DNA of 64,000 nucleotides from Herbidospora galbida (GTDB taxonomy: Bacteria > Actinomycetota > Actinomycetes > Streptosporangiales > Streptosporangiaceae), in the NCBI RefSeq assembly GCF_005233835.1, contig NZ_SZQA01000009.1:124001-188000 (forward strand). The letters are read 5' to 3'. The position numbers and the translations under genes were made by a program. Shown one piece after another: positions 17,353 to 45,664 of this stretch; positions within the stretch are counted from its first letter, which is position 1; the number at the start of each line of letters is the position of its first letter. The notes under the pieces were generated by a model, which did not search any database, was not told where the DNA came from, and saw only the letters and a list, made by a program, of their open reading frames with translations.

Positions 17353-17869
17353 GGAGGTCGAGCAGGCGGCCGGCCTGGGCGCGCTGGTCGGGCTCGCCGG
17401 CGATGAGGGAGATGCCGCCCAGCGCCATCAGCACGTCGAGGGCCGCGACGTCGTCGCGGATCGCGCCTTCGGCGGCGGCGGTGTCGAGGAGTGATCCGAG
17501 CGCGCCGGTGATCCGGGCACGGACGGCCAGCCGTCGCTCCTCGTCGCCGGCGAGCACGACCTTCAGCGCGTCGGCCATGGCGCGCTTGGCCGCCAGGAAG
17601 TCGAGGAAGGTCTCCATCCAGGCGCGCGGGTGCGGGGCCGAGGTCTCGGCCTCCTCGCAGATGCGGTCGACCTCGCCGCTGTAGACGGCCCAGACCAGGT
17701 CCTCGCGGGTCGGGAAGCGGCGGTAGAGGGTGCCGATGCCCACGCCCGCCTCCTTCGCGATCTCCCGCAGCGAGGCGTCGGCGCCGCCGTCGCGGGCGAA
17801 GGCCCGGCGGGCGGCGGCGAGCACCAGATCCTGGTTGGCCTTCGCGTCGGCGCGCAGGCGGTCGGCCAC
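17324..17869 (-). CDS. TetR-family regulator
   Basis: 181 residues. The N-terminal helix-turn-helix (about 10-60) reads VLAAARRAFARDGGADASLR, EIAKEAGVGIGTLYRRFPTR. The C-terminal ligand domain resembles the TetR_C subtypes of SDR-linked regulators. It is divergent from an SDR gene across a 96-bp spacer that carries a perfect 22-bp palindrome, so the SDR and the regulator itself are the probable targets. The stop lies inside the end of the DUF1232 gene. Confidence 0.92.
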   Translation of the reverse strand: MADRLRADAKANQDLVLAAARRAFARDGGADASLREIAKEAGVGIGTLYRRFPTREDLVWAVYSGEVDRICEEAETSAPHPRAWMETFLDFLAAKRAMADALKVVLAGDEERRLAVRARITGALGSLLDTAAAEGAIRDDVAALDVLMALGGISLIAGEPDQRAQAGRLLDLLMDGLRPCR

Positions 17870-17888
17870 CTGACCTCCTCGGACTTGC

Positions 17889-17910
17889 TAAACGGAGCAT
17901 GCTCCGTTTA
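17889..17910. promoter_or_regulatory. Perfect 22-bp TetR operator
   Basis: The half-site TAAACGGAGCA (17889-17899) is followed directly by its reverse complement TGCTCCGTTTA (17900-17910). It lies 20 bp upstream of the TetR start and 56 bp upstream of the SDR start. A weaker related inverted repeat, GCGGA-N6-TCCGC (17924-17939), follows 14 bp later and may be a second low-affinity site. Confidence 0.75.
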
Positions 17911-17965
17911 TGGTCGGACGTATGCGGACGGCGCTCCGCTTATCGCAAGTGTACGAGGAGGACCC

Positions 17966-18730
17966 ATGACGGCATCACTGAGGCAGACCGTCGCCCTGGT
18001 GACGGGCGCGAGCAGCGGGATCGGCGCGGCCACGGCGCGCGCCCTGGCGGAGGAGGGGGCCTCGGTGGCGCTGGTGGCCCGGCGCGCCGACCGGCTCGAC
18101 GAGCTCGCGGCGGAGATCCGGGCGGCCGGCGGCGCCGCGACGGTCGTTCCGGCCGACATCGCCGACCGCGTCCAGGCGCGCGAGGCGGTCGGCCGGGTCG
18201 TCGAGGAGCTCGGCCGCCTCGACACCGTGGTCAACAACGCCGGCGTGTGCCTCGTCGGCCCGGCCGAGGCGGCCCCCGAGCACGAGTGGGACCGCATGCT
18301 CGCGGTCAACGTCGAGGGCCTCCTGCACGTCACCCGGGCCGCGCTCCCCCACCTCGTCAGGGCGGCGGAGAGCTCGCCCCGGCGGGTCGCCGACCTGGTC
18401 ACGATCAGCTCCACCGCCGGACGGGTGGCCCGCGCCGGCCAGGCCGTCTACAGCCTGACCAAGTCGGGCGTGAACGCCTTCTCCGAGTCGCTCCGGCAGG
18501 AGCTGCAGCCCAAGCGGGTCCGCGTCGGCGTCGTCGGGCCCGGCACGGTCGACACCGAACTCGCCTCCCACCTGCGCGACGGCGTACGCGAGGCCGTCGC
18601 CGGCCAGATCGGCGCCATGGAACTCCTGCGCCCGGACGACGTCGCCGACGCCGTCCGCTACATGGTCACCCGCGAGAGGCGGGTCGCGGTCAACGAGATG
18701 CTGGTCAGGGCCGGCGAGCAGAGCTGGTGA
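17966..18730 (+). CDS. Short-chain dehydrogenase/reductase under TetR control
   Basis: 254 residues, classical SDR. Rossmann TGASSGIG (about 14-21), NNAGV (about 90), catalytic Ser in TISSTAG and Tyr/Lys in YSLTKSG. The C-terminus ends MLVRAGEQSW. NAD(P)-dependent alcohol oxidation or ketone reduction is expected; the substrate is unknown. The ATG at 17966 has GGAGGA about 5 bases upstream; the longer frame from 17630 is antisense to TetR. It ends 4 bp before the convergent cysN. Confidence 0.92.
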   Translation: MTASLRQTVALVTGASSGIGAATARALAEEGASVALVARRADRLDELAAEIRAAGGAATVVPADIADRVQAREAVGRVVEELGRLDTVVNNAGVCLVGPAEAAPEHEWDRMLAVNVEGLLHVTRAALPHLVRAAESSPRRVADLVTISSTAGRVARAGQAVYSLTKSGVNAFSESLRQELQPKRVRVGVVGPGTVDTELASHLRDGVREAVAGQIGAMELLRPDDVADAVRYMVTRERRVAVNEMLVRAGEQSW

Positions 18731-18734
18731 CCGG

Positions 18735-19892
18735 TCAGGCGACCGAGATCATGCCCGCCGACCGGGTCGCGCCGTCGCCCGGGTCGATCAGCAGGCAGGC
18801 GCCCGTGATCCGGCTCTCGGCGTAGTCGTCGACCGCCAGGTCCGACGCGGTGCGCACCACCACGTCGCCGATGTCGTTGACGCCCAGCGGGCCGCCCGTC
18901 CCGATCTCCTCCACCACCGCGTGGACGGTCCGGGTGGTGTGCTTGACCAGCACCTTCTCGCCGACCGTGAGGGCCTTCTCGTGCAGGTGGCAGACCGTCG
19001 CGCGCAGTTCGCGGGTGGTCTCGGGCGCGGTGGCCGCCGGTGAGATGAGGGCGCCGCGCGACACGTCGAGGTCGTCGGCCAGCCGGACCGCGATCGACTG
19101 CGGCGCCCAGGCCGTCGCCACCGGCTCCCCCAGCACGTCGATGCCGGCCACGGTCGTCGTGTGGCCGCCGGGCTGGACGACCACCCGTTCGCCGACGTGC
19201 AGGATGCCGCCCGTGAGCTGGCCGGCGTAGGCGCGGCGGCCCCGCGTCTTGATGACGTACTGGACCGGGAGCCGCGCGGGCAGCCCGGTCAGGTCCTCGC
19301 CGGCCTCGGCCGTCTCGAGGAACTCCAGCACGGTCGGCCCGGTGTACCAGTCCATGTGCGCCGACGGGGTCACCACGTTGTCGCCGCTCAGGGCCGAGAT
19401 CGGGATGGCCGTCACCTCGCCGGGGTGGTCGAGGTCGTCGGCGATCGACGCGAAGACCTCCTCCGACCAGCCGACCAGGTCCATCTTGTTGACCGCGAGG
19501 ACCAGCGAAGGCACCCGCAGCAGCGCGGCCACGGCGGCGTGGCGGCGGGTCTGCTCGGTCACGCCCCTGCGGGCGTCGACCACGAGCACGACGAGCTCGG
19601 CCGTCGACGCGCCGGTCACCATGTTCCGCGTGTACTGCACGTGGCCCGGGGTGTCGGCCAGGACGAACCGCCGGCGGGGGGTGGCGAAGTAGCGGTAGGC
19701 GACGTCGATCGTGATGCCCTGCTCCCGCTCGGCGCGCAGGCCGTCGGTGAGGAGGGCCAGGTCGCCGGGCGAGGCGATCTTCTCCAGCTGGTCGGACATG
19801 ACCGACTTGGAGTCGTGCAGAAGACGCCCGACCAGCGTCGACTTGCCGTCGTCGACGGAGCCGGCGGTGGCCAGCCTGAGCAGTGTGGACAT
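18735..19892 (-). CDS. cysN: Sulfate adenylyltransferase subunit 1 (GTPase)
   Basis: 385 residues, an elongation-factor-like GTPase: G1 GSVDDGKST (about 11-19), G2 region GITIDVAYRYF, G3 DTPGH, G4 NKMD. Two beta-barrel domains follow. Paired with CysD it makes adenosine phosphosulfate (APS) from ATP and sulfate. It lacks the C-terminal APS-kinase domain of CysNC proteins and is short for CysN. The ATG overlaps the cysD stop as TGATG, so they form one operon with the upstream biosynthetic genes. The likely purpose is sulfate activation for the sulfotransferase, not assimilation. Confidence 0.95.
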   Translation of the reverse strand: MSTLLRLATAGSVDDGKSTLVGRLLHDSKSVMSDQLEKIASPGDLALLTDGLRAEREQGITIDVAYRYFATPRRRFVLADTPGHVQYTRNMVTGASTAELVVLVVDARRGVTEQTRRHAAVAALLRVPSLVLAVNKMDLVGWSEEVFASIADDLDHPGEVTAIPISALSGDNVVTPSAHMDWYTGPTVLEFLETAEAGEDLTGLPARLPVQYVIKTRGRRAYAGQLTGGILHVGERVVVQPGGHTTTVAGIDVLGEPVATAWAPQSIAVRLADDLDVSRGALISPAATAPETTRELRATVCHLHEKALTVGEKVLVKHTTRTVHAVVEEIGTGGPLGVNDIGDVVVRTASDLAVDDYAESRITGACLLIDPGDGATRSAGMISVA

Positions 19893-20770
19893 CAGAAGTA
19901 CCCTTCTCGTTTGCGGTCCTCCATGGCGGCCTCGGCCAGCCGGTCGTCGGCGCGGGTCGCGCCGCGCTCGGTGATCCGCGAGGCCGCGATCTCCTCGACG
20001 ACCTCGCCGGGGGTGCGGGCGGTCGACTCGACCGCGCCGGTGCAGGACATGTCGCCGACCGTGCGGTAGCGGACCGTCCGGCGGACCAGCCGCTCCGACC
20101 GCCCGCCCCACGCGCCGGGGCACAGCCACATCCCGCGCCGGTCGAACACCTCGCGTTCGTGGGCGTAGTAGATCGACGGCAGCGCGATGTCCTCGGCCGC
20201 GATGTACTGCCAGACGTCCAGCTCGGTCCAGTTCGACAGCGGGAAGACGCGGACGTGCTCCCCCGGGCAGTGGCGGCCGTTGTAGAGGTTCCAGAGCTCC
20301 GGGCGCTGGCGGCGCGGGTCCCAGCCGCCGAACTCGTCGCGGAGGGAGAAGACGCGCTCCTTCGCGCGGGCCTTCTCCTCGTCGCGCCGCCCGCCGCCGA
20401 AGACGGCGTCGTAGCCGCCGGCCTCGATGGCGTCCAGCAGGGGCGTGGTCTGCAGGCCGTTCCGCTCCGGTACGTCCGGCAGCGCGCCCCGGTCGATGTA
20501 GTCCTGCACCGAGGCGACCTCCAGCCGCAGGCCCGCCGTCACCCGGTCGCGGAACTCGATGACCTCGGGGAAGTTGTGGCCGGTGTCGACGTGCAGGAGC
20601 GGGAAGGGCACCGGCGCGGGGGCGAAGGCCTTGACGGCCACGTGCAGCATGACGATGGAGTCCTTGCCGCCGGAGAACAGCAGCACCGGGCGGTCGAACT
20701 CGCCGGCGGTCTCGCGCATGATGTGCGCGGCCTCGGCCTCCAGCGCCTCCAGATGGGTGGTGGTCGTCAT
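19892..20770 (-). CDS. cysD: Sulfate adenylyltransferase subunit 2
   Basis: 292 residues of the PP-loop ATP pyrophosphatase type: FSGGKDSIVMLHVAVKAF (about 32-49), HVDTGHNFPEVIEFRD, and GGGRRDEEKARAKERVFSLR. The C-terminus RMWLCPGAWGGRSERLVRR-like region is WLCPG. It adenylates sulfate with CysN. Start ATG at 20768-20770 overlaps the stop of the LysZ-LysK fusion as TGATG. Location inside an amino-acid carrier-protein cluster with a sulfotransferase suggests supply of PAPS for product sulfation; an APS kinase is not in this window. Confidence 0.95.
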   Translation of the reverse strand: MTTTTHLEALEAEAAHIMRETAGEFDRPVLLFSGGKDSIVMLHVAVKAFAPAPVPFPLLHVDTGHNFPEVIEFRDRVTAGLRLEVASVQDYIDRGALPDVPERNGLQTTPLLDAIEAGGYDAVFGGGRRDEEKARAKERVFSLRDEFGGWDPRRQRPELWNLYNGRHCPGEHVRVFPLSNWTELDVWQYIAAEDIALPSIYYAHEREVFDRRGMWLCPGAWGGRSERLVRRTVRYRTVGDMSCTGAVESTARTPGEVVEEIAASRITERGATRADDRLAEAAMEDRKREGYF

Positions 20771-22647: not shown

Positions 22648-23415
22648 TCACACTCCTCTGGTGTTGCCGCCGTCGGCCACGACGACCGTGCCGGTGACGT
22701 AGGCGGCCTGGTCGCTGGCGAGGAAGGCGGCCAGCGCGCCGAAGTCGTCGACGTCGCCGATCCGGCCCAGCGGGATCCGGCTCGCGACGGCGGCGAGTTC
22801 CTCCTCCACGGAGGCGCCGAACTGCTCGTCGAGGATCGGGGTGCGGTGGAAGCCGGGGGCCAGCACGTTCACCGTCACCCCGCTCGCGCCCAGCACCGAG
22901 ACCAGGCCCTTCATGTAGCCGAGCAGCCCGAGCCGGGCCACCGACGACAGGCCGCTCTCGGGGTGCGGCTGCCGGACCGACTCGGAGGCGATCATCAGCA
23001 GGCGTCCCCAGCCGTCCTTCTTCACGTAGGGCAGGGCGGCCAGCGTCACGGCGATGTGCGGGATCAGGTTGGCGTCGATGGCGGCCCGGTAGTCGGCCAC
23101 GCCGAACGCGTCGACGGGGCCGAACGGCACGCCGCCGGAGTTGGTCACCACGATGTCGATGCCGCCGAGCGTGGCGGCGGTGTCGCGGACCCAGGCGGCG
23201 GCGGCGTTCTCGTCGCACAGGTCGACCGGGACGCTCAGCACGTCGCCGTCGCCCATGGCGCTCACCTCGACGTGGGCGCGGGCGAGCTTGCCGGGGTCGC
23301 GGCCGCAGATGGCCACGCTGGCCCCCTCGGCGGCCAGGGCCTTGGCGACGCCCAGGCCGAGGCCGCTGCTGGAGCAGGCCACCAGGGCGACCCGCCCTTT
23401 CAGGCGCAGATCCAT
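22648..23415 (-). CDS. Atypical SDR without YxxxK
   Basis: 255 residues with an SDR fold: cofactor loop ACSSSGLGLG (about 14-23), TNSGG in place of NNAG, and a C-terminal GTVVVADGGNTRG. The usual Tyr-x-x-x-Lys is missing: the aligned stretch is LSSVARLGLLGYMKGL, giving Ser/Arg at the Tyr/Lys positions. Divergent SDRs with this SNxxR-type replacement are known among annotated 3-oxoacyl-reductase-like proteins. Catalysis may differ or be lost. It sits between the sulfotransferase and LysZ-LysK genes (gaps of 12 and 3 bp), so a reduction on a LysW-bound ketone is a reasonable guess. Confidence 0.85.
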   Translation of the reverse strand: MDLRLKGRVALVACSSSGLGLGVAKALAAEGASVAICGRDPGKLARAHVEVSAMGDGDVLSVPVDLCDENAAAAWVRDTAATLGGIDIVVTNSGGVPFGPVDAFGVADYRAAIDANLIPHIAVTLAALPYVKKDGWGRLLMIASESVRQPHPESGLSSVARLGLLGYMKGLVSVLGASGVTVNVLAPGFHRTPILDEQFGASVEEELAAVASRIPLGRIGDVDDFGALAAFLASDQAAYVTGTVVVADGGNTRGV

Positions 23416-23427
23416 GGGATGTCCCCC

Positions 23428-24342
23428 TCAGGTCAGAATCGGGTAGCCGTAGCGGCCCAGCAGGGGCAGGGCCGGGGCCGTGGCGGCGGCGCGGGCGCGG
23501 GCGGAAAGGCCGGTGCGCCAGCGTTCGTCGGCGCGGATGCGCGCCGGGCCGGCCGACAGCCGGTCGGGGTTGCCGGTGACCGTGTGGTTCACGCCGAGCG
23601 TGACGTTGCCGTCGGCGTCGGCGGGCGGGGCGTCGTCCAGACCGGCGAACCGCAGCACCCGCGCGAGCGTGCCGCGCGGGTCGCGGCACAGGTCCTCGTG
23701 GCGGACCCGCAGGTAGCGGTCGGGGGCGGCGTGGCCGGACAGTTCGGAGGCCAGGTTGAAGCCGGTCCAGAAGCCGCTGCTGCGGGCCGGGCTCATCGGG
23801 TCGATGTAGTCCTTGGCCTTCGCGTAGGAGAACGCGGTGGCGCGCGGATCGCGCACCATGTGCAGCACCCGCACGTCGAGGTCGGCGCGGCCCAGCAGGG
23901 CCGCCGCCTCAGCCGGGAACTTCGAGCCGTCGACGACGAGCCGCTCGCCGCCGTGCGCGGCGAGCGTCCGGTAGATCCCGGCGGTACGCCCGACCGCCTC
24001 GGCCACCCCGGGCGCCGTCGCGACCCGGCCGGTCGACTCGGCGATCCGGTCGCGCGTGTGGCGGGTGCGCAGCAGCGCCCGCTGCTGGAGCGTCATCAGC
24101 CGGGCCTCGCCCAGCCGATCGCCACCGGTCGACGTGACGACCTTCGACCACAGGTCGCAGGCCGTGACGTCGGCGCCGCAGCCGCAGGTCGAGTTGGTGC
24201 CGGCCTTCAGGATGCCGTTCTGCCACAGGTAGTGCAGCTCGCCGGCGTGCAGCACGCCGGGCAGTTCGCCCAGCACGTTGCCGAGCATGGTGCTGCCGCT
24301 GCGCAGCCAGCCGGTGATGTAGAGGACGCGCGGCTCACCCAT
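23428..24342 (-). CDS. PAPS-dependent sulfotransferase
   Basis: 304 residues. The 5-prime-phosphosulfate loop is TGWLRSGSTMLG at 10-21 and the 3-prime-phosphate-binding segment is MVRDPRATAFSYAKAKDYI, with a downstream RVRHEDLC strand. Four cysteines cluster in STCGCGADVTAC (about 51-62). It transfers sulfate to a hydroxyl or amine of a small molecule. The start overlaps the encapsulin-like stop by 8 bp. With CysDN in the same operon it points to a sulfated product. Family and order are clear; acceptor is unknown. Confidence 0.88.
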   Translation of the reverse strand: MGEPRVLYITGWLRSGSTMLGNVLGELPGVLHAGELHYLWQNGILKAGTNSTCGCGADVTACDLWSKVVTSTGGDRLGEARLMTLQQRALLRTRHTRDRIAESTGRVATAPGVAEAVGRTAGIYRTLAAHGGERLVVDGSKFPAEAAALLGRADLDVRVLHMVRDPRATAFSYAKAKDYIDPMSPARSSGFWTGFNLASELSGHAAPDRYLRVRHEDLCRDPRGTLARVLRFAGLDDAPPADADGNVTLGVNHTVTGNPDRLSAGPARIRADERWRTGLSARARAAATAPALPLLGRYGYPILT

Positions 24343-25159
24343 GCCACTTCACCGCCATCAGGTGCTGCGGCAGGTGCACCGCCAGCCCGATCCTGGACGT
24401 GGCCCGCACGGCCCCCGGCAGCAGTTCGATCGACGCGACGCCCGGCATGAGCAGCGTGCAGGCGGCCCGGAAGTCGCCCATGAGCAGGGTGTCCTTCGGC
24501 ATCATCCGGGTGCGCGAGACGGTGATGCCGGCGTTCTGGAACCGCACCAGCAGGTCGTCGCGGACCATCTTCCAGTACGTCTCCGGGTGCGCCACCACGC
24601 CGTCGCACGACCCGCCGGTCTCCTCGATCTCCCCGGCGGCCCGGGTGACCGTGGTCGCCAGGTCGTCGTGGCTCTCGGCCGAGCGGCTGCCCGGCAGGCC
24701 CAGCAGTCCGGTGATCGCGCCGTCGGCGGTGCCGTGCAGCAGCGACTCGTTCTCGACGACGGACAGGCGTACCAGCACCCGGTAGTCCACGTACGCGGCG
24801 AGCAGCGCCGGGTCGGCGGCGACGCCGTCGGGCAGCGGCACCTCGACGGACAGGTCGGTCAGCGGCGCCTTCATCAGCCGGGGCGCGAACGCGGCCTCCG
24901 GGGTGGCGCCGTAGGCGGTGCCGGCCGCCCCGATCCGGCCCTTGGGCGGCTCGTGGACGTAGGACACCGACCCGTCGGCCACGTCGGCGGTCTTCAGCAG
25001 GTGGCGGACCGTGTAGCGCGGCCGGGACGCGAACAGGGGGAACGCGGCCGGCAGGTGCAGGCCGAACGGGACCTCACGGGCCCCCGCGGCCACCTCGGCG
25101 GCGAACCGCTCCCCCGGCGACGCTTCGTATGACGCTTCGTGCAGGGCTGTCGCTCGCAT
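24335..25159 (-). CDS. HK97-fold shell protein, family-3-type encapsulin
   Basis: 274 residues. Its core matches phage major-capsid/encapsulin proteins: an extended-loop-like region about 45-100 (GSVSYVHEPP with a GTAYGATPEAAFAPR stretch), the spine-helix pattern AAYVDYRVLVRLSVVENESL followed by LHGTADGAITGLLGLPG (about 142-157), a HPETYWKMVRDDL helix, and MGDFRAACTLLMPGVASIEL (about 227-246) like the LVGDF strand of capsid proteins. No portal, protease or other phage gene is near. Strong GAGGAGGG site precedes the ATG. It is the first gene of the leftward operon with sulfotransferase, SDR, LysZ-LysK and CysDN, so it may encapsulate one or more of these enzymes. Family-3 encapsulins occur in natural-product clusters; which protein is cargo is unknown. 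Confidence 0.8.
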   Translation of the reverse strand: MRATALHEASYEASPGERFAAEVAAGAREVPFGLHLPAAFPLFASRPRYTVRHLLKTADVADGSVSYVHEPPKGRIGAAGTAYGATPEAAFAPRLMKAPLTDLSVEVPLPDGVAADPALLAAYVDYRVLVRLSVVENESLLHGTADGAITGLLGLPGSRSAESHDDLATTVTRAAGEIEETGGSCDGVVAHPETYWKMVRDDLLVRFQNAGITVSRTRMMPKDTLLMGDFRAACTLLMPGVASIELLPGAVRATSRIGLAVHLPQHLMAVKWHG

Positions 25160-25383: not shown

Positions 25384-25566
25384 ATGCAGAAGGTTATGAA
25401 CGCCCCCGAGTGTCCCGAGTGCGCGGCGCCGGTCTCCATCGACGCCGACGCCCGGGTGAGCGAGATCGTCGAATGCCTCGACTGCCGCAGTGAGCTGGAG
25501 ATCTCCTCCGTCACGCCGCCGTCCCTCACCCTCGCCCCCGAGGTCGAAGAGGACTGGGGGGAGTAA
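25384..25566 (+). CDS. lysW: LysW-type amino-group carrier protein
   Basis: 60 residues. A zinc-ribbon with two CxxC pairs (CPEC at 10-13, CLDC at 31-34) and an acidic C-terminus ending EDWGE. In LysW the terminal Glu side chain is ligated to the amino group of the substrate, and the tail motif is diagnostic. It is the first gene of a tightly spaced operon: LysX, LysY and transketolase follow. In primary metabolism LysW carries aminoadipate or glutamate; in secondary metabolism homologues (AmCP) carry non-standard amino acids, as in vazabitide A biosynthesis. Confidence 0.93.
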   Translation: MQKVMNAPECPECAAPVSIDADARVSEIVECLDCRSELEISSVTPPSLTLAPEVEEDWGE

Positions 25567-26414
25567 TGCGCTCCGACCACCGTCTCGCCGTGCTCGCGTC
25601 ACGGGTGCGGTTCGAGGAGAAGCAGATCATGGCCGCGCTGGACCGGCGCGGCGCGACGTTCGTCCACCTCGATCCCCGTTCTCTGGTCGTGGCCGACGGC
25701 GTTTCCCGGAAGGATTTCGTGCTGAACCGCGAGGTCGGCCACTACCGGGCCCTCTACGCCGCGAGCGCGCTGGAGTCGGCGGGGGCGACGGTGCTGAACA
25801 CCGCCGCCGCCACCCATGTCAGCGGCGACAAGTGGCTGACCACCGCGGCGCTCCTGGCCGCGGGCCTGCCGACCCCCCGCACCGCCCTGGCCATGACGCC
25901 CGAGGCGGCCGTCGACGCCCTCGACCAGATCGGCTACCCGGCGGTCGTCAAACCGCTGGTCGGCTCGTGGGGGCGCCTGGTCACCGCGATCCCCGACCGG
26001 CCCACCGCGACCGCCGTGCTCGAACACGTCGCGGCCCTGCCCTCGCCCCAGCAGCACGTCGTCTACGTGCAGGAACTCGTCGAGAAGGCCGACCGGGACA
26101 TCCGGGTGCTGGTCGTCGGCGGGCAGGCGCTGGGCGCGACCTACCGGCGCGGCGACGAGTGGCGCACCAACGTTGCCCGGGGCGCCGTCTCGACCCGGTG
26201 CGAGCTGACCGACGTCCACGCGAAGCTCGCGGTCGCCGCCGCCGAGGCGGTGGGCGCCGAGATCGCCGGGGTCGACCTGCTCGAGGACGCCGACGGGCAC
26301 CTGACCGTGCTGGAGGTCAACGACCGCGTGGAGTTCCGCGGCTTCCAGGACGCCCACGAGATCGACGTCGCCGACGTCGTGGCGTCTCACGTCCTAGGGA
26401 GGGCACGAGCATGA
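25566..26414 (+). CDS. lysX: LysX-like ATP-grasp ligase, LysW-substrate ligation
   Basis: 282 residues, RimK-type ATP-grasp. Features: PAVVKPLVGSWGRLVTAIPD, the ELVEKADRDIRVLVVGGQ segment, and VNDRVEFRGFQD near the C-terminus as metal/ATP-binding region. LysX joins the alpha-amino group of glutamate or aminoadipate to the C-terminal Glu of LysW. The ATG at 25566 overlaps the LysW TAA by one base. Length and motif order are typical of LysX/ArgX. Confidence 0.9.
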   Translation: MRSDHRLAVLASRVRFEEKQIMAALDRRGATFVHLDPRSLVVADGVSRKDFVLNREVGHYRALYAASALESAGATVLNTAAATHVSGDKWLTTAALLAAGLPTPRTALAMTPEAAVDALDQIGYPAVVKPLVGSWGRLVTAIPDRPTATAVLEHVAALPSPQQHVVYVQELVEKADRDIRVLVVGGQALGATYRRGDEWRTNVARGAVSTRCELTDVHAKLAVAAAEAVGAEIAGVDLLEDADGHLTVLEVNDRVEFRGFQDAHEIDVADVVASHVLGRARA

Positions 26415-27445
26415 TCCGATGCGCCGTCGTGGGAGGCGCCGGCTACATCGGCGGCGAACTCCTGCGCATCCTCACCGGGCACCCATCGGCCGACCTGGTG
26501 GCCACCACCTCACGGCGGCTGCGCGGCCGGCAGATCGACGGCGCCCACCCCAACCTGCGCGGCCGCACCCGGCTGGCCTTCGTCTCCGACGAGGAGCTCG
26601 ACCAGGACGGCCCCTACGACGTGCTGTTCCTGGCCACGCCCCACCGCGAGACCATGCGGCGGATGCCCGAGTTCCTCGGGCTGGCCGCGACCGTGGTCGA
26701 CCTGTCGGGCGACTTCCGGCTGCGCGACCCGGCGGTCTACGCCGACTACTACGGCGTCGACCACGCCGCGCCCGACCTCATCGGGAGCTTCACGACCGGC
26801 GTACCGGAGCTGCACCGCGAGGAACTCCAGGTCGCGAGCCGCATCAGCGTGCCCGGGTGCATGGCCAACGCCGGCATCCTGGCGCTGACCCCGCTGGCCG
26901 AGGCCGGGCTGATCCACGGCGTACTGACCGTGGACGCCCGCACCGGCTCCAGCGGCGCCGGCGCGACCGCCGGGGCCGAGAACCTGCACGCCGAACGCAG
27001 CGGCGCCCTCCGGGTGTTCGCGCCCACCCGGCACCGCCACGAGGCCGAGATCGCCCAGGCCACCGGCCTGCCGGTCCGGATGACGGCGACCGGCGTCGAG
27101 GCCGTGCGCGGGGTGCAGCTGCTCTGCAAGGCCCGGCTGGCCGAGGGCGCCGACGAGCGCGCGATCCGGTCGGCCTACCGCGACCGCTACGCCGACGAGC
27201 ACTTCGTGCGGGTGGTCGCCCACCGGCGCGGCCTGCACCGGTTCCCGGACGCCAAGATCCTCTCCGGCTCCAACTTCTGCGACGTCGGCTTCGCCCTCGA
27301 CGCCGGATCGACCACGGTCACCGTGATCGCGGCCCTCGACAACCTCGTCAAGGGCGGCGCCGGCAACGCCGTGCAGTGCATGAACATCCGCCACGGCCGC
27401 CCCGAGCGCGAGGGCCTGGAGTTCGTCGGCCTGCACCCGAACTAG
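26411..27445 (+). CDS. lysY: LysY/ArgC-like carrier-bound acyl-phosphate reductase
   Basis: 344 residues, N-acetyl-gamma-glutamyl-phosphate reductase family: GGAGYIGGELLRIL at 8-21, catalytic Cys150 in SVPGCMANAG, and a C-terminal GGAGNAVQCMN segment. It reduces the LysW-bound acyl phosphate made by LysZ to the semialdehyde with NADPH. Start by ATGA overlap with LysX. The Pro-Gly-Cys context is slightly unlike the usual NPGCYPT. The semialdehyde would be the acceptor for the transketolase that follows. Confidence 0.9.
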   Translation: MIRCAVVGGAGYIGGELLRILTGHPSADLVATTSRRLRGRQIDGAHPNLRGRTRLAFVSDEELDQDGPYDVLFLATPHRETMRRMPEFLGLAATVVDLSGDFRLRDPAVYADYYGVDHAAPDLIGSFTTGVPELHREELQVASRISVPGCMANAGILALTPLAEAGLIHGVLTVDARTGSSGAGATAGAENLHAERSGALRVFAPTRHRHEAEIAQATGLPVRMTATGVEAVRGVQLLCKARLAEGADERAIRSAYRDRYADEHFVRVVAHRRGLHRFPDAKILSGSNFCDVGFALDAGSTTVTVIAALDNLVKGGAGNAVQCMNIRHGRPEREGLEFVGLHPN

Positions 27446-27453
27446 GAGAACCG

Positions 27454-28284
27454 ATGACCACCACCATCGACGCCCCGCCGGCGGCCGGGACGGCCGCCCG
27501 GATCAGGGAGCACGTCGTCAACCTGTGCGCCAGCCCCGAGGGCGGCCACCTGGGCGGCTCGATGTCGCTCGCGGAGATCCTCGCCACCCTGTACACGCGG
27601 GTGCTGCGGGTCGACCCCCTCGACCCGGCGCGCCCCGACCGGGACGTGCTGCTGCTCAGCAAGGGCCACGGCGGCCTGGCGCTCTACGCCGCGCTGACCG
27701 AGGCCGGGTTCTTCCCGGCCGACCGGCTCGACGAGTACGCCCGGCCCGGCAGCGAGTTCACGGCCCACCCCCACGCCGAGATCCCCGGCGTCGAGATGCC
27801 CTCGGGCTCGCTCGGCCACGGGCTCGCGCTGGCGGTCGGGTTCGCGCTGGGGTTCCGGCTCGACGGCGCCGACCGGCGCTGCTTCGTCGTCATGGGCGAC
27901 GGCGAGCTCCAGGAGGGCTCGGTCTGGGAGGCCGCCTCGGTGGCCGCCGCCCAGCGGCTCGACAGCGTCGTCGCGATCGTCGACCGCAACCGGCTCCAGA
28001 TCACCGGCGCGACCGAGACGATCGACGCGCTCGAACCGCTGGCCGATCGGTGGTCGGCCTTCGGCTGGACGGTACGCCAGGTCGACGGCCACTCCTGCGA
28101 GGAGCTGGAGGCCGCCCTCACCGAGGCGCCCGTGGACGGCCGTCCGACGGTCGTGATCGCCCACACCGTGAAGGGCAAGGGCATCCCGTTCGTCGAGGAC
28201 CAGCCGCGCAGCCACTACGCCAAGCTCGGCGAACGCCAGCACGCCAAGGCCCTCGCCGCGCTGCGAAGGGGGGCCGCCTCATGA
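27454..28284 (+). CDS. Transketolase, N-terminal subunit
   Basis: 276 residues, the thiamin-diphosphate binding half of a split transketolase: SKGHGGLALYAALTEAGF, GDGELQEGSVWEAASVAAAQ and VDRNRLQITG. Split transketolases of this type move C2 units. The AGGAG ribosome site lies in the LysY stop region, nine bases from the stop. Placed after LysX/LysY, it likely adds a two-carbon ketol unit to the LysW-bound semialdehyde, as proposed for vazabitide-type AmCP pathways. Confidence 0.92.
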   Translation: MTTTIDAPPAAGTAARIREHVVNLCASPEGGHLGGSMSLAEILATLYTRVLRVDPLDPARPDRDVLLLSKGHGGLALYAALTEAGFFPADRLDEYARPGSEFTAHPHAEIPGVEMPSGSLGHGLALAVGFALGFRLDGADRRCFVVMGDGELQEGSVWEAASVAAAQRLDSVVAIVDRNRLQITGATETIDALEPLADRWSAFGWTVRQVDGHSCEELEAALTEAPVDGRPTVVIAHTVKGKGIPFVEDQPRSHYAKLGERQHAKALAALRRGAAS

Positions 28285-29207
28285 CCGCCTCCTCACGCGA
28301 GGTCTACCGCGACGCCGTGCTCGACCTGCTCCCGCAGGACGAACGGCTGGTCTGCCTCGACTCCGACACCGGCCTGTTCGACGCGGCCGCCTTCCCCGAG
28401 CGCTACGTCAACCTCGGCATCGCCGAGCACACGCTGATGGGCGCGGCGGCCGGGCTGGCCAAGTCGGGCCGGATGCCGCTGGTCAACACGATGGCGGCGT
28501 TCGCGTCGTCGCGGGCCAACGAGGCCGTGAAGATCGACATCGCGCTCAACGACCTGCCGGTGCGGATCGCCGCGACCCACTCGGGCGTGTCCGCCGGCCA
28601 CCTCGGGCCGACCCACCACGCGCTGGAGGACCTGGCCGTGATGCGGACCCTGCCCAACATGACCGTGGTCGTGCCGGCCGACGGCCCGCAGACCGGGACG
28701 CTGTTCCGGCAGTCGCTCCACGTCAGGGGCCCGGTCTACCTGCGGCTCGGCCGCAACGCGACCCCCGAGTTGCCCGACGCGCCGCCGGTCACGCTCGGCC
28801 TGGCCCAGGTGCTCAGAGACGGCCCCGACGTCACGCTCGCGGCCTGTGGGCCCTATCCCGTGCTGGCCGCGCTCGACGCCGCCGACGCGCTCGCCGAAGA
28901 GGGCGTCCGCGCGTCGGTGCTGAACGTGCACACCGTGAAGCCCCTCGACGTCGCCACGATCGCCGCGCACGCCGAACGCTCCGGCGTCGTCGTGACCGTC
29001 GAGGAGCACTGGCGAAACGCCGGGTTCGGCGCCGCCGTCGCCGAGTCGCTCGCCGAGATCGCGCCCAGCCTGGTGCTCCGGGTTGCGATGCCGGACGCGT
29101 TCGTCCCCGTCTCCGGTGGGCAGCGGTATCTGGCCGAACGCGGAGGCGTCACCTCGGCCGCGGTCGCCGCCAAGGCTCGTCTCGCGCTTCGGAGGGATCC
29201 GCGATGA
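28281..29207 (+). CDS. Transketolase, C-terminal subunit
   Basis: 308 residues, pyrimidine-binding plus C-terminal domain: VNLGIAEHTLMGAAAGLAKS with the catalytic Glu, HSGVSAGHLGPTHHALEDL and a transketolase_C domain about 185-300. It pairs with the preceding subunit to make a full enzyme. Coupled by ATGA overlap. No other transketolase reaction is obvious in the cluster. Confidence 0.92.
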   Translation: MTASSREVYRDAVLDLLPQDERLVCLDSDTGLFDAAAFPERYVNLGIAEHTLMGAAAGLAKSGRMPLVNTMAAFASSRANEAVKIDIALNDLPVRIAATHSGVSAGHLGPTHHALEDLAVMRTLPNMTVVVPADGPQTGTLFRQSLHVRGPVYLRLGRNATPELPDAPPVTLGLAQVLRDGPDVTLAACGPYPVLAALDAADALAEEGVRASVLNVHTVKPLDVATIAAHAERSGVVVTVEEHWRNAGFGAAVAESLAEIAPSLVLRVAMPDAFVPVSGGQRYLAERGGVTSAAVAAKARLALRRDPR

Positions 29208-30667
29208 CCATCATGGACGACCTGCGCGGACATCCGCCCGGCAAGCTCGCCCTGGTCTGCCACCAGGACGGCGGGGCGGTGGAGCTGACGTACGGAGAGC
29301 TGCTCGACCGCGTCGACCGGATGGCCACGCTGCTGCGCCGGCTCGGCGTCGGCAGGGGCCAGGTGGTGACGTTGCAGCTGCCCAACTCGTGGCAGCTGGC
29401 CGCGCTGATCCTGGCGTGTCACCGGATCGGGGCGATCCCCGGGCCGGTGGTGCCGATCATGCGGCGGCGGGAGGTCCGGTTCATGTTGAACCTGACCGAG
29501 AGCCCGGTCTACGTCGCGCGCGCGGAGTTCCGCGGATTCTCGTACCGGGACATGATCGCCTCCGTGGACGCGCCGCACCTGCGCCACGCCCTGTTCGTCG
29601 ACGACCTCGAACTGCCCCCGGCCGACCTCGACGGGGTCGAGGAGCCGGGTCCCGGCGATCCGGCGCAGGTGGCGTTCACCTCCGGCACGACCGGCGAGCC
29701 GAAGGGGGTCGTGCACACCCACGACACCCTCCGGGCGATGAACCGGGCGCAGGCCGAGGTGCTCCACCTGACCTCCGGCGTCGTCACGGCCATGGGGTCG
29801 CCGACGACGCACCAGGCCGGGTTCACCTGGAACCTGTTCATGCCGCTGCTGCTCGGCGGGACCGCCGTCCACGTCGAGTCGTGGGACGCCGACCGGATGC
29901 TCGACATCCTCCAGGAGCGCGGCGTGACCTTCTTCATGGGTGCCCCGACGTTCCTGTCCGACCTCATCGAGGCGCAGGCCGAGCGTCCGCGGGATCTGCG
30001 CAGGCTGGAGACCTTCGCGACCGGCAGCGCGCCGATCGCGCCCTACCTGGTCGAACGCGCCCGCGACGTACTCGGCTGCCGCCTCTACGCCCTGTGGGGC
30101 ATGACCGAGAACGGCTGCGTCACCATCACCCGGCCGGAGGACCCGCCGATGCGGGCCGCCGAGAGCGACGGGACCGCCGTGCCCGGCATGGAGGTGCGGA
30201 TCACCGCCGAGGGCCGGTTACAGGTCAGGGGCGCGTCGCAGTGCGCCGGCTACTTCCGGCGCGAGCACGTCTACCGGGCCTGTCTCACCGACGACGGCTG
30301 GTTCGACACCGGCGACCTGGCCCGCGACGACGGCCACGGCGGCATCCGGATCACCGGGCGCGCCAAGGACGTCATCATGCGCGGCGCCGAGAACATCCCG
30401 GTCGTCGAGGTCGAGGCGGCCCTGCTCCGGCACTCCTCCGTCCGGGACGTCGCGGTCGTCGGCTACCCCGACGAGCGGCTCGGCGAGCGGGCCTGCGCGG
30501 TGCTGGTGGCCTCCCCCGGCGTGACGCTCGACGATCTGCGCGTGCACCTGGCCGGGCTCGGGATGGCCAAGCAGTACTGGCCGGAACGGCTGGAACTGGT
30601 GCCGTCGCTGCCGCGCACGCCGTCCGGGAAGATCCAGAAATTCGCCCTGCGGGAGGGGCTGCGATGA
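29204..30667 (+). CDS. AMP-forming acyl/aryl-CoA ligase of the carrier-protein operon
   Basis: 487 residues of the ANL superfamily: P-loop FTSGTTGEPKGVVHTH, GMTEN, GWFDTGDLA and the C-terminal lysine in RTPSGKIQK. Similar to cyclohexanecarboxylate- or fatty-acid-CoA ligases. It may activate a carboxylic acid for the dehydrogenase next door. ATGA overlap with the transketolase gene shows it belongs to the operon. Acid substrate unknown. Confidence 0.88.
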   Translation: MTIMDDLRGHPPGKLALVCHQDGGAVELTYGELLDRVDRMATLLRRLGVGRGQVVTLQLPNSWQLAALILACHRIGAIPGPVVPIMRRREVRFMLNLTESPVYVARAEFRGFSYRDMIASVDAPHLRHALFVDDLELPPADLDGVEEPGPGDPAQVAFTSGTTGEPKGVVHTHDTLRAMNRAQAEVLHLTSGVVTAMGSPTTHQAGFTWNLFMPLLLGGTAVHVESWDADRMLDILQERGVTFFMGAPTFLSDLIEAQAERPRDLRRLETFATGSAPIAPYLVERARDVLGCRLYALWGMTENGCVTITRPEDPPMRAAESDGTAVPGMEVRITAEGRLQVRGASQCAGYFRREHVYRACLTDDGWFDTGDLARDDGHGGIRITGRAKDVIMRGAENIPVVEVEAALLRHSSVRDVAVVGYPDERLGERACAVLVASPGVTLDDLRVHLAGLGMAKQYWPERLELVPSLPRTPSGKIQKFALREGLR

Positions 30668-31803
30668 ACCTCGACTTCACACCGCAGCAGGAGACGCTGG
30701 CCAAACGGGTCCGCGAGTTCGCCGCCGACCGCGTCGCGCCCTTCCGGGCCGAGAGCGACCGGCGGGCCGAATACCGTCCGGGCCTGCTGGCCGAGATGGC
30801 CGCCGAAGGTCTGTTCGGCGTCCGCGTCCCCGAGGAGTTCGGCGGTCAGGCGCTCGACGCGGTCAGCGCCGGCATCGTGCTCGAAGAGCTCGCCGCGGCC
30901 GACCTGTCGGTCTGCTACCCGGTGCTCAACGCGGCACTGGTGGGCGGCGTGCTGGCCGCGAACGGCACCCCCGCCCAGCTGGCCCGCTGGCTTCCCGGGA
31001 TCGCGGCCGGTACGTCGATCGTCGCCCTCGGCCTCACCGAGGCCGGCCACGGGACCGACGCGGCGGCCATCGAGACCGCCGGGGAGCACTTCGCCGACGG
31101 CTGGCGGCTGACGGGCGAGAAGACGTCCATCATGGCCACCGCCTACGCCACCCACGGGCTGCTGTTCGCCCGGACCGGCGCGGCCGGGGCCCGTGGCATC
31201 AGCGCCTTCTACACCCCGTTGCACGGCGTGCGCCGCGAGCTGCACACCGACCTGGGCTGCCGCTCGGGCGGCCGGGGCCGCTTCTCCCTCGACGGCCTGC
31301 GGGTCGCCGACGACGACCTCGTCGGCCGGCCGGGCGCCGGATTCGTGGAGGTGATGCGCGGCTTCGGGGTCTCCCGGGCGCTGATCTCCCTGATGGCCAT
31401 CGCCGTGGGGCAGGCCGCCCTGGACGAGGCCATGGCCTACGCCGGACGGCGCGAGGCCTTCGGCCGGCCCATCGGGAAATTCCAGTCGGTCGCGTTCCCC
31501 CTGGTCGAACACGCGACCATGCTGCACGCGGCGCGCCTGGTCTCCTACGAGGCCCTGGCCGCCGCCGACGCCGGCCGCGATCCTCGGTTACCCGCGAACA
31601 TGGCGAAGTGGTGGGCCCCCAAGGCCGCCATGGAGGCCGTCCACCAGTCGCTTCTCACGATGGGCCACGTCGGCTGGTCGGAGGACGGGCCGGTGGCCCA
31701 GCGCCTCAGAGACGTCATCGGCCTGCAACTCGCCGACGGCACCGCCGCCGCGACCAAGCTGGTCGTCGCACGCCACCTGCTGGGACGGGAGGCGGCACCA
31801 TGA
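30664..31803 (+). CDS. Acyl-CoA dehydrogenase-like flavoprotein
   Basis: 379 residues with the acyl-CoA dehydrogenase layout: helical N-domain, LTEAGHGTDAAAIETAGE, GEKTSIMATAYATHGLLFA and a C-domain with REAFGRPIGKFQSVAFPLVE. The usual Glu-Gly-Thr catalytic segment reads ADGTAAATK, so Asp replaces Glu; another position may serve as base. It ends the LysW operon and is coupled to the ligase by ATGA. It likely desaturates the acyl group made by the ligase, possibly a side chain for the final product. Confidence 0.88.
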   Translation: MNLDFTPQQETLAKRVREFAADRVAPFRAESDRRAEYRPGLLAEMAAEGLFGVRVPEEFGGQALDAVSAGIVLEELAAADLSVCYPVLNAALVGGVLAANGTPAQLARWLPGIAAGTSIVALGLTEAGHGTDAAAIETAGEHFADGWRLTGEKTSIMATAYATHGLLFARTGAAGARGISAFYTPLHGVRRELHTDLGCRSGGRGRFSLDGLRVADDDLVGRPGAGFVEVMRGFGVSRALISLMAIAVGQAALDEAMAYAGRREAFGRPIGKFQSVAFPLVEHATMLHAARLVSYEALAAADAGRDPRLPANMAKWWAPKAAMEAVHQSLLTMGHVGWSEDGPVAQRLRDVIGLQLADGTAAATKLVVARHLLGREAAP

Positions 31804-31817: not shown

Positions 31818-32435
31818 TCAGGCTCGGACCGGTTCCGCATCGGCGCCATCGCCCACGCGGACGGCGGATCCGCCGGGTGCCGCGTTGGCCGGCCCGGCGG
31901 CCGTGCCCCGGCGGTAGGTGCGCATCTTCGCGCGGGCGCCGCAGACGGCCATCGAGCACCAGCGGCTGCCCCGGTTGCGGGAGCGGTCGTAGAAGGCCCA
32001 TTCGCAGCGGTGCTCCCGGCAGGCCTTGAGCCGCGACCACGAGCCGTCGGCCACGGCGGCGGCGACCGCGCCGAGCAGCGTGGCGAACACGCCGCGCAGG
32101 TCGGACTGGACCGGGCGCAGGCCGAGAGTCTCGCCCGACAGGACCAAGGGGCAGTCGCGCGCGACGTGGCCGATCGTCAGCCGGGCCTCGGGGTCGGGGG
32201 CGGCGCCGTTGTTCTCGCGGAGCACGGCGCGCAGCGCCTCCCGCAGGGTGACGGCGTCGCGCCGGTCGAGCTCGGCCACCTCCAGCGTGAAGCCGTGGCG
32301 GGCCAGCCAGCGCTCGACCCCCTCGGCCGTCGCGAACTCGTCGGGCCCGAACTCCACGTTGACGCTGTTCACGAACGACTGAACGAGCGCCAGCGGGCCC
32401 GGCGCGATCTCCCTGTCTCCCGGCTGACCTTTCAT
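31818..32435 (-). CDS. CGNR zinc-finger (ABATE-domain) regulator
   Basis: 205 residues. An N-terminal ABATE-like helical domain (about 20-140) is followed by a CGNR zinc finger: CREHRCEWAFYDRSRNRGSR and WCSMAVCGARAKMRTYRRG, with Cys138, Cys143-like and Cys-x-x-x-Cys ligands. Such proteins are actinomycete regulators. It is divergent from an MFS exporter and its start codon lies 3 bp from a TTACC-N17-GGTAA inverted repeat, so a leaderless transcript under autoregulation is possible. The same motif recurs before the benzoxazole-type operon. Confidence 0.85.
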   Translation of the reverse strand: MKGQPGDREIAPGPLALVQSFVNSVNVEFGPDEFATAEGVERWLARHGFTLEVAELDRRDAVTLREALRAVLRENNGAAPDPEARLTIGHVARDCPLVLSGETLGLRPVQSDLRGVFATLLGAVAAAVADGSWSRLKACREHRCEWAFYDRSRNRGSRWCSMAVCGARAKMRTYRRGTAAGPANAAPGGSAVRVGDGADAEPVRA

Positions 32436-33937: not shown

Positions 33938-33980
33938 ATTGCATAACAAGCGCTAATCGAGACGCCATTGTTCGGCCGTA

Positions 33981-34009
33981 GTTACCGCCATAGCGTGGTA
34001 AGCGGTAAC
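33981..34009. promoter_or_regulatory. TTACC-N17-GGTAA operator before the monooxygenase gene
   Basis: GTTACCGC (33981-33988) and GCGGTAAC (34002-34009) are a perfect inverted repeat with a 13-bp spacer, centred about 30 bp upstream of the monooxygenase start. TTACC and GGTAA are separated by 17 bases as in the CGNR/MFS site, so the same regulator may bind both. A second shorter half-pair, TTACC with GGTAA at 33996-34000, is nested. Confidence 0.6.
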
Positions 34010-34024
34010 AGCGAAAGGACGGAC

Positions 34025-37309: not shown

Positions 37310-37361
37310 AGCGAGACGCGGACGGCCGAAGGCCGGCCGTGGCTCGCGCTGTGAATCTGCC
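37307..37361 (+). repeat. 55-bp intercistronic hairpin element, copy A
   Basis: Starts at the DAHP synthase stop codon (TGA) and ends before the A-T gene. It differs from copy B (45590-45644) at only three positions. A central ACGGCC-GAAGGCC-GGCCGT stem-loop is flanked by GCGAG and CTCGC arms that extend the hairpin. It is a processing or attenuation element, or a mobile palindromic unit inserted at gene ends. Confidence 0.8.
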
Positions 37362-37379
37362 CAACAGACAGGACTGATC

Positions 37380-39503: not shown

Positions 39504-39510
39504 GGACGGC

Positions 39511-43324: not shown

Positions 43325-43557
43325 CCGTCAAGGAGGAACTCCGCACCACCGTCGCCGGGCTCGTCGGCGCCGACCCGGCGACCGTGTCCGACGACGACAA
43401 CCTCGTCTTCCTCGGCCTGGGGTCGCTGGAGATGATGCGCCTGGTCACCAAGTGGCGGCGGGCCGGCCTGAAGGTCGAGTTCCGTGAGCTCGCGGCGACG
43501 CCCACGATCTCGGCCTGGGCCGCGCAGCTCGAGAAGCTGGAGGAGGCGAGCGCATGA
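43321..43557 (+). CDS. Aryl carrier protein
   Basis: 78 residues, four-helix carrier fold. Phosphopantetheine Ser35 in LGLGSLEMMRL (family pattern GxDS...). Acidic and small. It accepts salicylate from the adjacent ligase; KASIII or the condensing partner then uses the thioester. Stop/start coupling on both sides makes co-expression certain. Confidence 0.92.
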   Translation: MTVKEELRTTVAGLVGADPATVSDDDNLVFLGLGSLEMMRLVTKWRRAGLKVEFRELAATPTISAWAAQLEKLEEASA

Positions 43558-45644: not shown

Positions 45645-45664
45645 TGATCGAAAGGAGTTGAACC

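What the first reader, a model, noticed from the sequence alone, without database searches (positions are those of the whole stretch)
24335..25159. Encapsulin-like shell protein inside an amino-group-carrier-protein cluster
The first gene of the leftward operon has HK97-fold signatures (spine helix with LHGTADGAITGLLGLPG, MGDFRAACTLL strand) but no phage genes nearby. It is co-transcribed with sulfotransferase, SDR, LysZ-LysK, CysD and CysN. Family-3 encapsulins have been reported bioinformatically in natural-product loci; a nanocompartment that houses carrier-protein chemistry would confine reactive aldehyde or ketol intermediates.
Basis: partly seen in the sequence, partly recalled or inferred. 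Interest (0 to 1): 0.92.

Follow-up and report, generated by a model that had tools for sequence, protein, structure and literature searches.

The report
Encapsulin beside a sulfotransferase, carrier-protein cluster
A soil actinobacterium carries a gene for a virus-derived protein shell inside a natural-product gene cluster, and comparison with relatives suggests that the shell goes with a sulfate-transferring enzyme rather than with the carrier-protein chemistry next to it.

Summary
Window 24335-25159 (-) encodes a 274-aa Family 3 encapsulin: NCBIfam NF041188, 327 bits, cut-off 180; the family profile matches HK97 gp5 at 3.9e-23. It leads a six-gene operon (shell, sulfotransferase, SDR, LysZ-LysK, CysD, CysN) divergent from LysW-LysX-LysY-transketolase and an aryl-acid module. 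The host is Herbidospora. Family 3 shells with sulfotransferase, SDR and amino-group carrier protein (AmCP) were described in 2021 (PMC8346489), so this is a new member of a known kind.

Of 86 shell loci, 33 show the AmCP module but 84 a sulfotransferase; the other two are near contig ends. Of 72 matches to the window's sulfotransferase above 200 bits in 341 genomes, 69 lie by a shell gene and 3 on contigs ending just short of where one lies in relatives. In contrast, 24 of 55 LysX matches lie apart from any shell gene; in the 18 of these read, none has this sulfotransferase, 16 have a DegT aminotransferase and 12 another sulfotransferase family. The shell tracks the sulfotransferase step, not the carrier. 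Cargo, assembly and product are unproven; no structure model was obtained.

The parts
24335..25159 (-). Family 3 encapsulin shell protein, 274 aa
   Evidence: NF041188 327 bits, cut-off 180; family profile matches HK97 gp5 at 3.9e-23
23428..24342 (-). Sulfotransferase (Sulfotransfer_3), 304 aa; overlaps the shell gene by 8 nt
   Evidence: Pfam 55.6 bits, cut-off 27; its close relatives lie beside shell genes
22648..23415 (-). SDR oxidoreductase, 255 aa
   Evidence: Pfam adh_short_C2 144.9 bits
20770..22644 (-). LysZ-LysK fusion (amino-acid kinase + M20 hydrolase), 624 aa
   Evidence: Pfam AA_kinase and Peptidase_M20; NCBIfam LysW-related models, the LysW-specific ones under their cut-offs
19892..20770 (-). 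CysD, sulfate adenylyltransferase small subunit
   Evidence: TIGR02039 416 bits, cut-off 396.6
18735..19892 (-). CysN, sulfate adenylyltransferase large subunit (the longer GTG start at 20129 would overlap CysD)
   Evidence: TIGR02034 433.6 bits, cut-off 336.1
25384..25566 (+). LysW-like amino-group carrier protein, 60 aa, ends EEDWGE
   Evidence: PF21344 50.7 bits, cut-off 27; C-terminus read
25566..26414 (+). LysX-like ligase
   Evidence: TIGR02144 266.3 bits, just under its cut-off 275.6; TIGR00768 rimK_fam over its cut-off
26411..27445 (+). LysY/ArgC-like semialdehyde dehydrogenase
   Evidence: TIGR01850 335 bits, cut-off 233.6
27442..28284 (+). Transketolase, N-terminal subunit
   Evidence: PF00456 154 bits, found within the longer ORF 26419-28284
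28281..29207 (+). Transketolase, C-terminal subunit
   Evidence: PF02779 and PF02780
29204..30667 (+). AMP-forming ligase / stand-alone adenylation enzyme
   Evidence: PF00501 236.5 bits; kept in relatives of other genera
30664..31803 (+). Acyl-CoA dehydrogenase
   Evidence: PF00441; kept in relatives of other genera
31818..32435 (-). CGNR zinc-finger regulator
   Evidence: PF11706
32491..33888 (+). MFS transporter
   Evidence: PF07690
33968..35227 (+). FAD-dependent monooxygenase-like protein
   Evidence: PF01494; linked in L159 and L160
35214..36251 (+). KSIII-like protein
   Evidence: PF08541; linked in L159 and L160
36248..37309 (+). DAHP synthase
   Evidence: TIGR00034 441.6 bits, cut-off 173.2; linked in L159 and L160
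37299..39503 (+). Adenylation plus carrier protein
   Evidence: PF00501 and PF00550; linked in L159 and L160
39511..40815 (+). Salicylate synthase
   Evidence: TIGR03494 440.4 bits, cut-off 325.15; linked in L159
40812..41792 (+). Second KSIII-like protein
   Evidence: PF08541; linked in L159
41678..43324 (+). AMP ligase (true start probably near 41790)
   Evidence: PF00501 223 bits; linked in L159
43321..43557 (+). Stand-alone carrier protein
   Evidence: PF00550 38.9 bits; linked in L159 and, weakly, L160
43554..44903 (+). Amidohydrolase
   Evidence: PF01979; linked in L159 and L160
44900..45592 (+). Further SDR-like ORF, 230 aa (no family scan run on this frame)
   Evidence: 31.5% identity to the SDR at 17630-18730 (92 bits); a similar match lies at this place in L159-L162
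46015..48135 (+). Anthranilate-synthase-like TrpE-G fusion
   Evidence: PF00425 and PF00117; linked in L159 and L160

Best explanation
The gene makes the shell protein of a Family 3 ('natural product') encapsulin. Most likely it assembles into a small HK97-type shell that encloses or organises the neighbouring sulfotransferase, probably with the SDR. Proposed pathway: LysW/LysX hold glutamate, LysZ and LysY reduce it to the semialdehyde, and transketolase adds two carbons to give a ketol. Unlike the known DADH/azabicycle route, the ketol is not transaminated; the SDR reduces it and the sulfotransferase sulfates it, with sulfate activated by CysD/CysN. The sulfate ester is either a leaving group for a ring closure, giving an electrophile that the shell keeps from the cytoplasm, or a final decoration; the salicylate/anthranilate-type module on the right probably supplies an aryl partner. 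Shown: family membership, HK97 homology, operon, linkage of shell to sulfotransferase, absence of the DegT aminotransferase found in shell-less AmCP clusters. Inferred: assembly, cargo, order of reactions, purpose of confinement, product.
For: Family; HK97 homology. A sulfotransferase is near the shell gene in 84 of 86 loci: 72 Sulfotransfer_3-type and 12 Sulfotransfer_5-type, never both (Pfam for one type D member). The two without one, L103 and L110, have about 1.0 and 0.7 kb from the middle of the shell gene to the contig end. A reductase (SDR or AKR) is in 81 of 86, one of them (L078) only 30% identical to the window's SDR. Genome-wide control: in 341 family genomes the window's sulfotransferase has 72 matches above 200 bits, then a drop to 179. 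69 lie within 6.1 kb of a shell gene; the other 3 (L135-L137) are on contigs that end at or near the lanthipeptide-synthetase gene that in relatives sits beside the shell gene. The AmCP module is in 33 of 86 and DegT in 36 of 86, never both; rechecked with other queries: DegT and Sulfotransfer_5 each 0 of 33. 18 AmCP loci apart from shells: this sulfotransferase 0 of 18, DegT 16 of 18, Sulfotransfer_5 12 of 18. On the shell tree AmCP loci fall in two groups, with DegT loci among those of type A, partly at moderate support. Precedent for sulfate as a leaving group on this kind of skeleton: a review passage on azinomycin (PMC9570651).
Against: No assembly data and no structure model. No conserved loading tail was found on the window type's sulfotransferase, SDR or the other twelve gene families compared, whereas the papers say that encapsulin cargo carries targeting signals. 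Sulfotransfer_5 enzymes homologous to those beside type D shells also occur without a shell in 12 of 18 loci, so sulfation as such does not need a shell; in 6 of the 18 no sulfotransferase of either kind was seen in the stretch read. Weak SDR matches (27-28% identity) exist in 3 of the 18. The 2021 paper reports a Mesorhizobium class of Family 3 with SDRs and names no sulfotransferase there, so the rule may fail outside this sample, in which 81 of 85 relatives come from one bacterial family. In type E and in L055, L059, L060 the sulfotransferase is 5-6 kb away on the other strand. Two type E loci (L086, L114) show no reductase although the stretch is held.
Confidence: 0.45

Rival explanations
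1. The shell houses the carrier-protein steps (LysY semialdehyde, transketolase ketol) to confine reactive carbonyls, as the first reader proposes and as the 2021 paper suggests for aldehydes or ketones in general.
For: Two AmCP types (A and B) have shell genes next to or among LysW/LysX/LysY/transketolase genes; the reactive aldehyde/ketone idea is in print.
Against: 53 of 86 shell loci show no AmCP module in the stretch held, a few of them cut by contig ends. 24 of 55 LysX matches lie apart from any shell gene, and 17 of the 18 read have LysW, LysY and transketolase. Two genomes (G433, G435) hold both kinds of AmCP cluster.
Confidence: 0.2
2. The shell takes up and stores or exports the finished product or a toxic late intermediate (self-protection), with no dedicated enzyme cargo.
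For: Cluster contents differ between types while the shell stays; no cargo tail was found in the window's type.
Against: It does not explain why the close relatives of this sulfotransferase lie beside shell genes in 69 of 72 cases, the other 3 being cut by contig ends.
Confidence: 0.15
3. A domesticated capsid protein that no longer forms closed shells and acts as a scaffold or oligomeric platform for the sulfotransferase and SDR.
For: Family 3 lacked experimental validation in the 2024 and 2025 introductions seen; the linkage data fit a scaffold equally well.
Against: The profile covers the HK97 core over most of its length; invariant residues are spread from position 16 to 263.
Confidence: 0.15
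4. A prophage remnant or chance HK97-like ORF.
For: Distant similarity to actinophage major capsid proteins (26.6% identity, E 2e-5).
Against: No phage structural genes among the neighbours scanned (and Pfam scans), low dN/dS within the genus, 70 of 341 family genomes over the curated cut-off, and a sulfotransferase beside 84 of 86 shell genes.
Confidence: 0.01

Closest known systems
Family 3 (natural product) encapsulins, Andreas and Giessen 2021 (PMC8346489; section 9 and searched passages read)
   Same: Shell protein over the NF041188 cut-off; cluster with sulfotransferase, SDR and AmCP; no phage genes.
   Different: Herbidospora and Streptosporangiaceae are not named in the main text; the supplement with the class assignments could not be read. 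The links found here (sulfotransferase clade tied to the shell, AmCP and DegT never together, lanthipeptide-synthetase-like gene beside some shells) are not in the section read.
AmCP / DADH azabicycle pathways (vazabitide, azinomycin; PMC9570651, passages read)
   Same: LysW-type carrier logic, transketolase and sulfation.
   Different: The window has no DegT aminotransferase and no Sulfotransfer_5 match; it has SDR, Sulfotransfer_3 and the shell instead. That Sulfotransfer_5 is the enzyme of the azabicycle route is my inference from cluster content.
HK97 major capsid protein gp5 and actinophage capsids
   Same: Homologous core.
   Different: 274 aa, too short (inference) for an N-terminal delta scaffold domain; no terminase or portal among the neighbours scanned.
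Family 1 encapsulins (Linocin_M18)
   Same: Distant HK97 kinship; Pfam Linocin_M18 13.7 bits.
   Different: Under the Pfam cut-off of 24.3.

Membership tests
Family 3 encapsulin | Shell protein over the curated family HMM cut-off | tested here: met
   327 bits, cut-off 180
Family 3 encapsulin | HK97-type capsid core | tested here: met
Family 3 encapsulin | Embedded in a biosynthetic gene cluster without phage genes | tested here: met
   Pfam scans and PHROGs on 10 proteins
Family 3 encapsulin | Self-assembly into a closed icosahedral shell | not testable with these tools
   Needs expression and electron microscopy
Encapsulin in general | Dedicated cargo with a targeting peptide or domain | tested here: inconclusive
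   No conserved extra tail on proteins of the window's type; a conserved 14-15 aa tail exists on the SDR of type C only, 20 of 20
Family 1 encapsulin | Linocin_M18 Pfam match over cut-off | tested here: not met
   13.7 bits, cut-off 24.3
Phage capsid / prophage | Phage structural genes alongside | tested here: not met
   None among the ORFs scanned
AmCP-dependent pathway | LysW carrier with ligase, kinase, reductase and hydrolase | tested here: met
   LysW 50.7 bits, LysX-like, LysZ-LysK, LysY-type reductase
DADH/azabicycle AmCP pathway | Aminotransferase acting after transketolase | tested here: not met
   No DegT-type match in the 64-kb window or in the 33 shell+AmCP loci; aminotransferases of other folds were looked for only by Pfam scans of window ORFs between about 10 and 49 kb, and one encoded elsewhere in the genome is not excluded

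The most novel reading that the evidence does not exclude
Family 3 encapsulins are sulfotransferase compartments. Whatever module builds the amino-alcohol (carrier protein plus transketolase, DegT aminotransferase, or an NRPS-like reductase), the last activation, reduction followed by sulfation to an electrophilic sulfate ester, is done inside a virus-derived shell so that the alkylating intermediate forms away from DNA.
Probability: 0.25. Interest if true: 0.85.

Novelty: new member of a known kind. Interest (0 to 1): 0.55.

Why it matters
Introductions published in 2024 and 2025 say that Family 3 encapsulins lack experimental validation (passages), and the 2021 paper calls the role of the only one with a known product unknown. 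The linkage pattern narrows the candidate cargo from a whole cluster to a sulfotransferase and a reductase, and Herbidospora offers a compact operon (shell, sulfotransferase, SDR) for a direct co-expression test. Genomes holding both a shell-type and a shell-less AmCP cluster give a natural comparison in one cell.

Tried and rejected
Prophage origin: rejected. Family 1 membership: rejected. Loading tail on the window's sulfotransferase: the stretch around RYGYP recurs in most of the relatives listed, and what follows it varies from -2 to 80 residues relative to the window without visible conservation. Sulfotransfer_5 with and without a shell: no extra tail on the shell-linked members (12 with, 12 without; one of the latter, L155, has an unsure start). 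Plasmid carriage: no match. I first took the right-hand genes (33968-48135) for a separate cluster because the stretches then held ended at the MFS gene; reading on in G533 (another genus) and G985 (another family) showed them linked to the shell cluster there too, so they are now counted as part of it. The ORF 44947-45996 scanned is the wrong frame; an SDR-like ORF 44900-45592 lies there. Structure prediction: the job failed after repeated polling.

Dropped or limited rows: L044-L048 were left out of counts because they duplicate five unnamed Herbidospora loci. Of 42 shell sequences at 85% identity, 41 went into alignment A1 (L114, with an aberrant C-terminus, was left out); the tree used all 86. 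Of 24 LysX matches apart from shells I read 18; not read: G473, G408, G606, G495, G520, G430. Three more LysX matches (G425, G643, G413) sit on contigs other than the shell contig of the same genome and may be contig breaks. One search scored at most 6 candidates per genome. One search stopped with an error and was rerun. The ORFs f14, f16 and f20 are antisense artefacts, and f26 is a separate amino-acid kinase; none of them was used in counts.

Full report
What is there. The ORF at 24335-25159 (-) is real and full length. It matches NCBIfam NF041188, the Family 3 encapsulin equivalog, at 327 bits with a cut-off of 180. Pfam gives only sub-threshold matches, Linocin_M18 first. A profile of 41 family members finds HK97 gp5 in the PDB at 3.9e-23 over profile positions 56-276; of ten sequences listed up to E 0.1, nine are named as capsid proteins (down to 7e-12) and the tenth is 2e0z, 'Virus-like particle', at 0.039, which I recall as a Family 1 relative. 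The nearest phage proteins are major capsid proteins of Gordonia phages, 26.6% identity, E 2e-5 (34 records matched). The host is Herbidospora, Streptosporangiaceae.

Anatomy. The shell gene leads a leftward operon: shell, sulfotransferase, SDR, LysZ-LysK fusion, CysD, CysN, with gaps of -8, +12, +3, -1 and -1 nt. Divergent from it run LysW, LysX, LysY, two transketolase subunits, an AMP ligase and an acyl-CoA dehydrogenase, a regulator and an MFS transporter, then an aryl-acid module: FAD enzyme, two KSIII-like proteins, DAHP synthase, adenylation-carrier protein, salicylate synthase (440 bits, cut-off 325), AMP ligase, carrier protein, amidohydrolase, an SDR-like ORF and a TrpE-G-like fusion. 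The part up to the MFS gene is kept in L077 and L092, two loci of another genus, and largely in L132 from another family. Reading on to the right in four loci, ten window genes were sought beyond MFS: 10 of 10 are present in both Herbidospora relatives and in G533 (another genus), and 7 of 10, in another order and up to the end of the stretch, in G985 (another family). They therefore belong to the cluster; other type A loci were not read that far.

Relatives. I read 85 further loci with NF041188 matches over the cut-off: 81 from 341 genomes of the same family (70 genomes and 82 places with the window; fetched) and 4 from class and phylum samples. With the window this makes 86. They fall into types: A, Herbidospora-like with AmCP (16, counting the contig-cut L051); B, AmCP in another order with a KSIII-like gene (18); C, mostly DegT aminotransferase with methyltransferase and FAD oxidase (22 as labelled, including the atypical L101 and the contig-cut L103); D, NRPS-like carboxylate reductase with AKR (12); E, DegT and a lanthipeptide-synthetase-like gene (10); others (8).

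What stays constant. A sulfotransferase is present in 84 of 86 loci: Sulfotransfer_3-type in 72, and in the 12 type D loci a Sulfotransfer_5-type enzyme (Pfam-confirmed in L082; the others by BLAST). Never both. The two without one have about 1.0 and 0.7 kb from the middle of the shell gene to the contig end. A reductase (SDR; AKR in D) is in 81 of 86, one of them (L078) a weak 30% match; the missing five are L086, L101, L103, L110 and L114, of which L101, L103 and L110 lie near contig ends. The AmCP module is in 33 and DegT in 36, never together; 17 show neither. Dereplicated at 70% shell identity, 18 of 19 have a sulfotransferase, 17 a reductase, 6 AmCP and 6 DegT.

Two controls. First, the window's sulfotransferase searched in the 341 family genomes gave 72 matches above 200 bits and then a gap to 179. 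69 lie within 6.1 kb of a shell gene. The other three (L135, L136, L137) lie on contigs that stop at or near the lanthipeptide-synthetase gene, that is, just before the place of the shell gene in type E. Three lower-scoring matches that I read (L138-L140) have no shell gene nearby. Second, LysX gave 55 matches in 53 genomes: 28 near shell genes, 3 on other contigs of shell genomes (possible breaks), 24 apart from any shell gene. Of these 24 I read 18: no shell gene, no Sulfotransfer_3 match, DegT in 16, Sulfotransfer_5 in 12, weak SDR matches in 3, LysW, LysY and transketolase in 17 (Pfam check of three DegT and three Sulfotransfer_5 proteins). Searching DegT and Sulfotransfer_5 back into the 33 shell+AmCP loci found none. 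Two genomes of the window's genus (G433, G435) hold both kinds of AmCP cluster. So the carrier-protein steps appear to run without a shell, and the shell goes with the Sulfotransfer_3-SDR pair.

Likely chemistry (inference). In the azabicycle pathways the transketolase product is transaminated to DADH, sulfated, and the sulfate displaced by the neighbouring amine to form an aziridine (PMC9570651, passage; the primary papers were not read). The shell clusters with AmCP lack the DegT aminotransferase and have an SDR instead, which suggests reduction of the ketol before sulfation. Whether the sulfate leaves in a ring closure or stays in the product is unknown; the 2021 paper suggests sulfated products. 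The only Family 3 cluster that paper names with a known product makes chloromyxamides, with 6-chloromethyl-5-methoxypipecolic acid. A seven-carbon piperidine with a displaced oxygen at C7 would fit activation by sulfation, but this is my own reading and was not tested. In the window's type the salicylate module may supply an aryl cap.

Cargo. No protein of the window's type shows a conserved extra tail. Sulfotransfer_5 enzymes with and without a shell do not differ in their C-terminal ends. In type C the SDR carries a conserved 14-15 residue C-terminal tail in 20 of 20 loci with a readable SDR, absent in the 49 SDRs of other types; it is a candidate loading signal for that type only.

Evidence against my reading. 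Sulfotransfer_5 occurs without shells elsewhere. In type E and in L055, L059 and L060 the sulfotransferase is 5-6 kb from the shell gene and on the other strand. The 2021 paper describes a Mesorhizobium class with SDRs and names no sulfotransferase there. The sample is almost wholly one bacterial family. On the shell tree the two AmCP groups are separate, but one gain with later losses is not excluded, and the tool warns of long branches. Nothing shows assembly, and no structure model could be made.

Novelty. Family 3 encapsulins in AmCP/sulfotransferase/SDR clusters are in print (PMC8346489; section 9 read in full, other passages by search). Two later introductions state that Family 3 lacks experimental validation (PMC10960027 and PMC12140327; passages only). 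Paper searches (one search listed 25 of 60 papers) showed no experimental study of Family 3 by title or abstract start; most subscription journals are not in that library. The window is a new member of a known kind. The sulfotransferase linkage and the two-way split of AmCP clusters are the added value.

Noticed in passing
L058:10788-13472 and the matching genes of 9 other type E loci: A lanthipeptide-synthetase-like protein (DUF4135 + LANC_like) is encoded divergently next to the shell gene in 10 loci. The main text of the 2021 paper has no word beginning lanthi, lantibiotic or LanM; a search for encapsulin with lanthipeptide listed three papers, not read, that look unrelated by title.
   Followed up: partly
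L065 and 19 other type C loci, C-terminus of the SDR: A conserved 14-15 residue tail (LPHLT...KDTYT-like) in 20 of 20 type C SDRs found, absent from the other 49; candidate cargo-loading peptide.
   Followed up: partly
L144 (G435), L145 (G433): Relatives of the same genus as the window carry a second, shell-less AmCP cluster with DegT aminotransferase and Sulfotransfer_5.
   Followed up: yes
window 33968-48135; L159, L160: An aryl-acid module with salicylate synthase, DAHP synthase and a TrpE-G-like fusion travels with the type A shell cluster into another genus and, in part as far as read, another family; no known product could be assigned.
   Followed up: partly
L058:2948-5929 and 6 other type E loci: A fused alpha-beta glycyl-tRNA synthetase gene near the shell cluster, possibly a resistance copy or a housekeeping neighbour.
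   Followed up: no
L106:14647-16968 and many type B loci: Lantibiotic-dehydratase N-terminal domain protein near the shell gene.
   Followed up: no
L114:9604-10440: The shell gene of G685 (this copy) has an aberrant C-terminus compared with its relatives, perhaps a frameshift or sequencing error.
   Followed up: no
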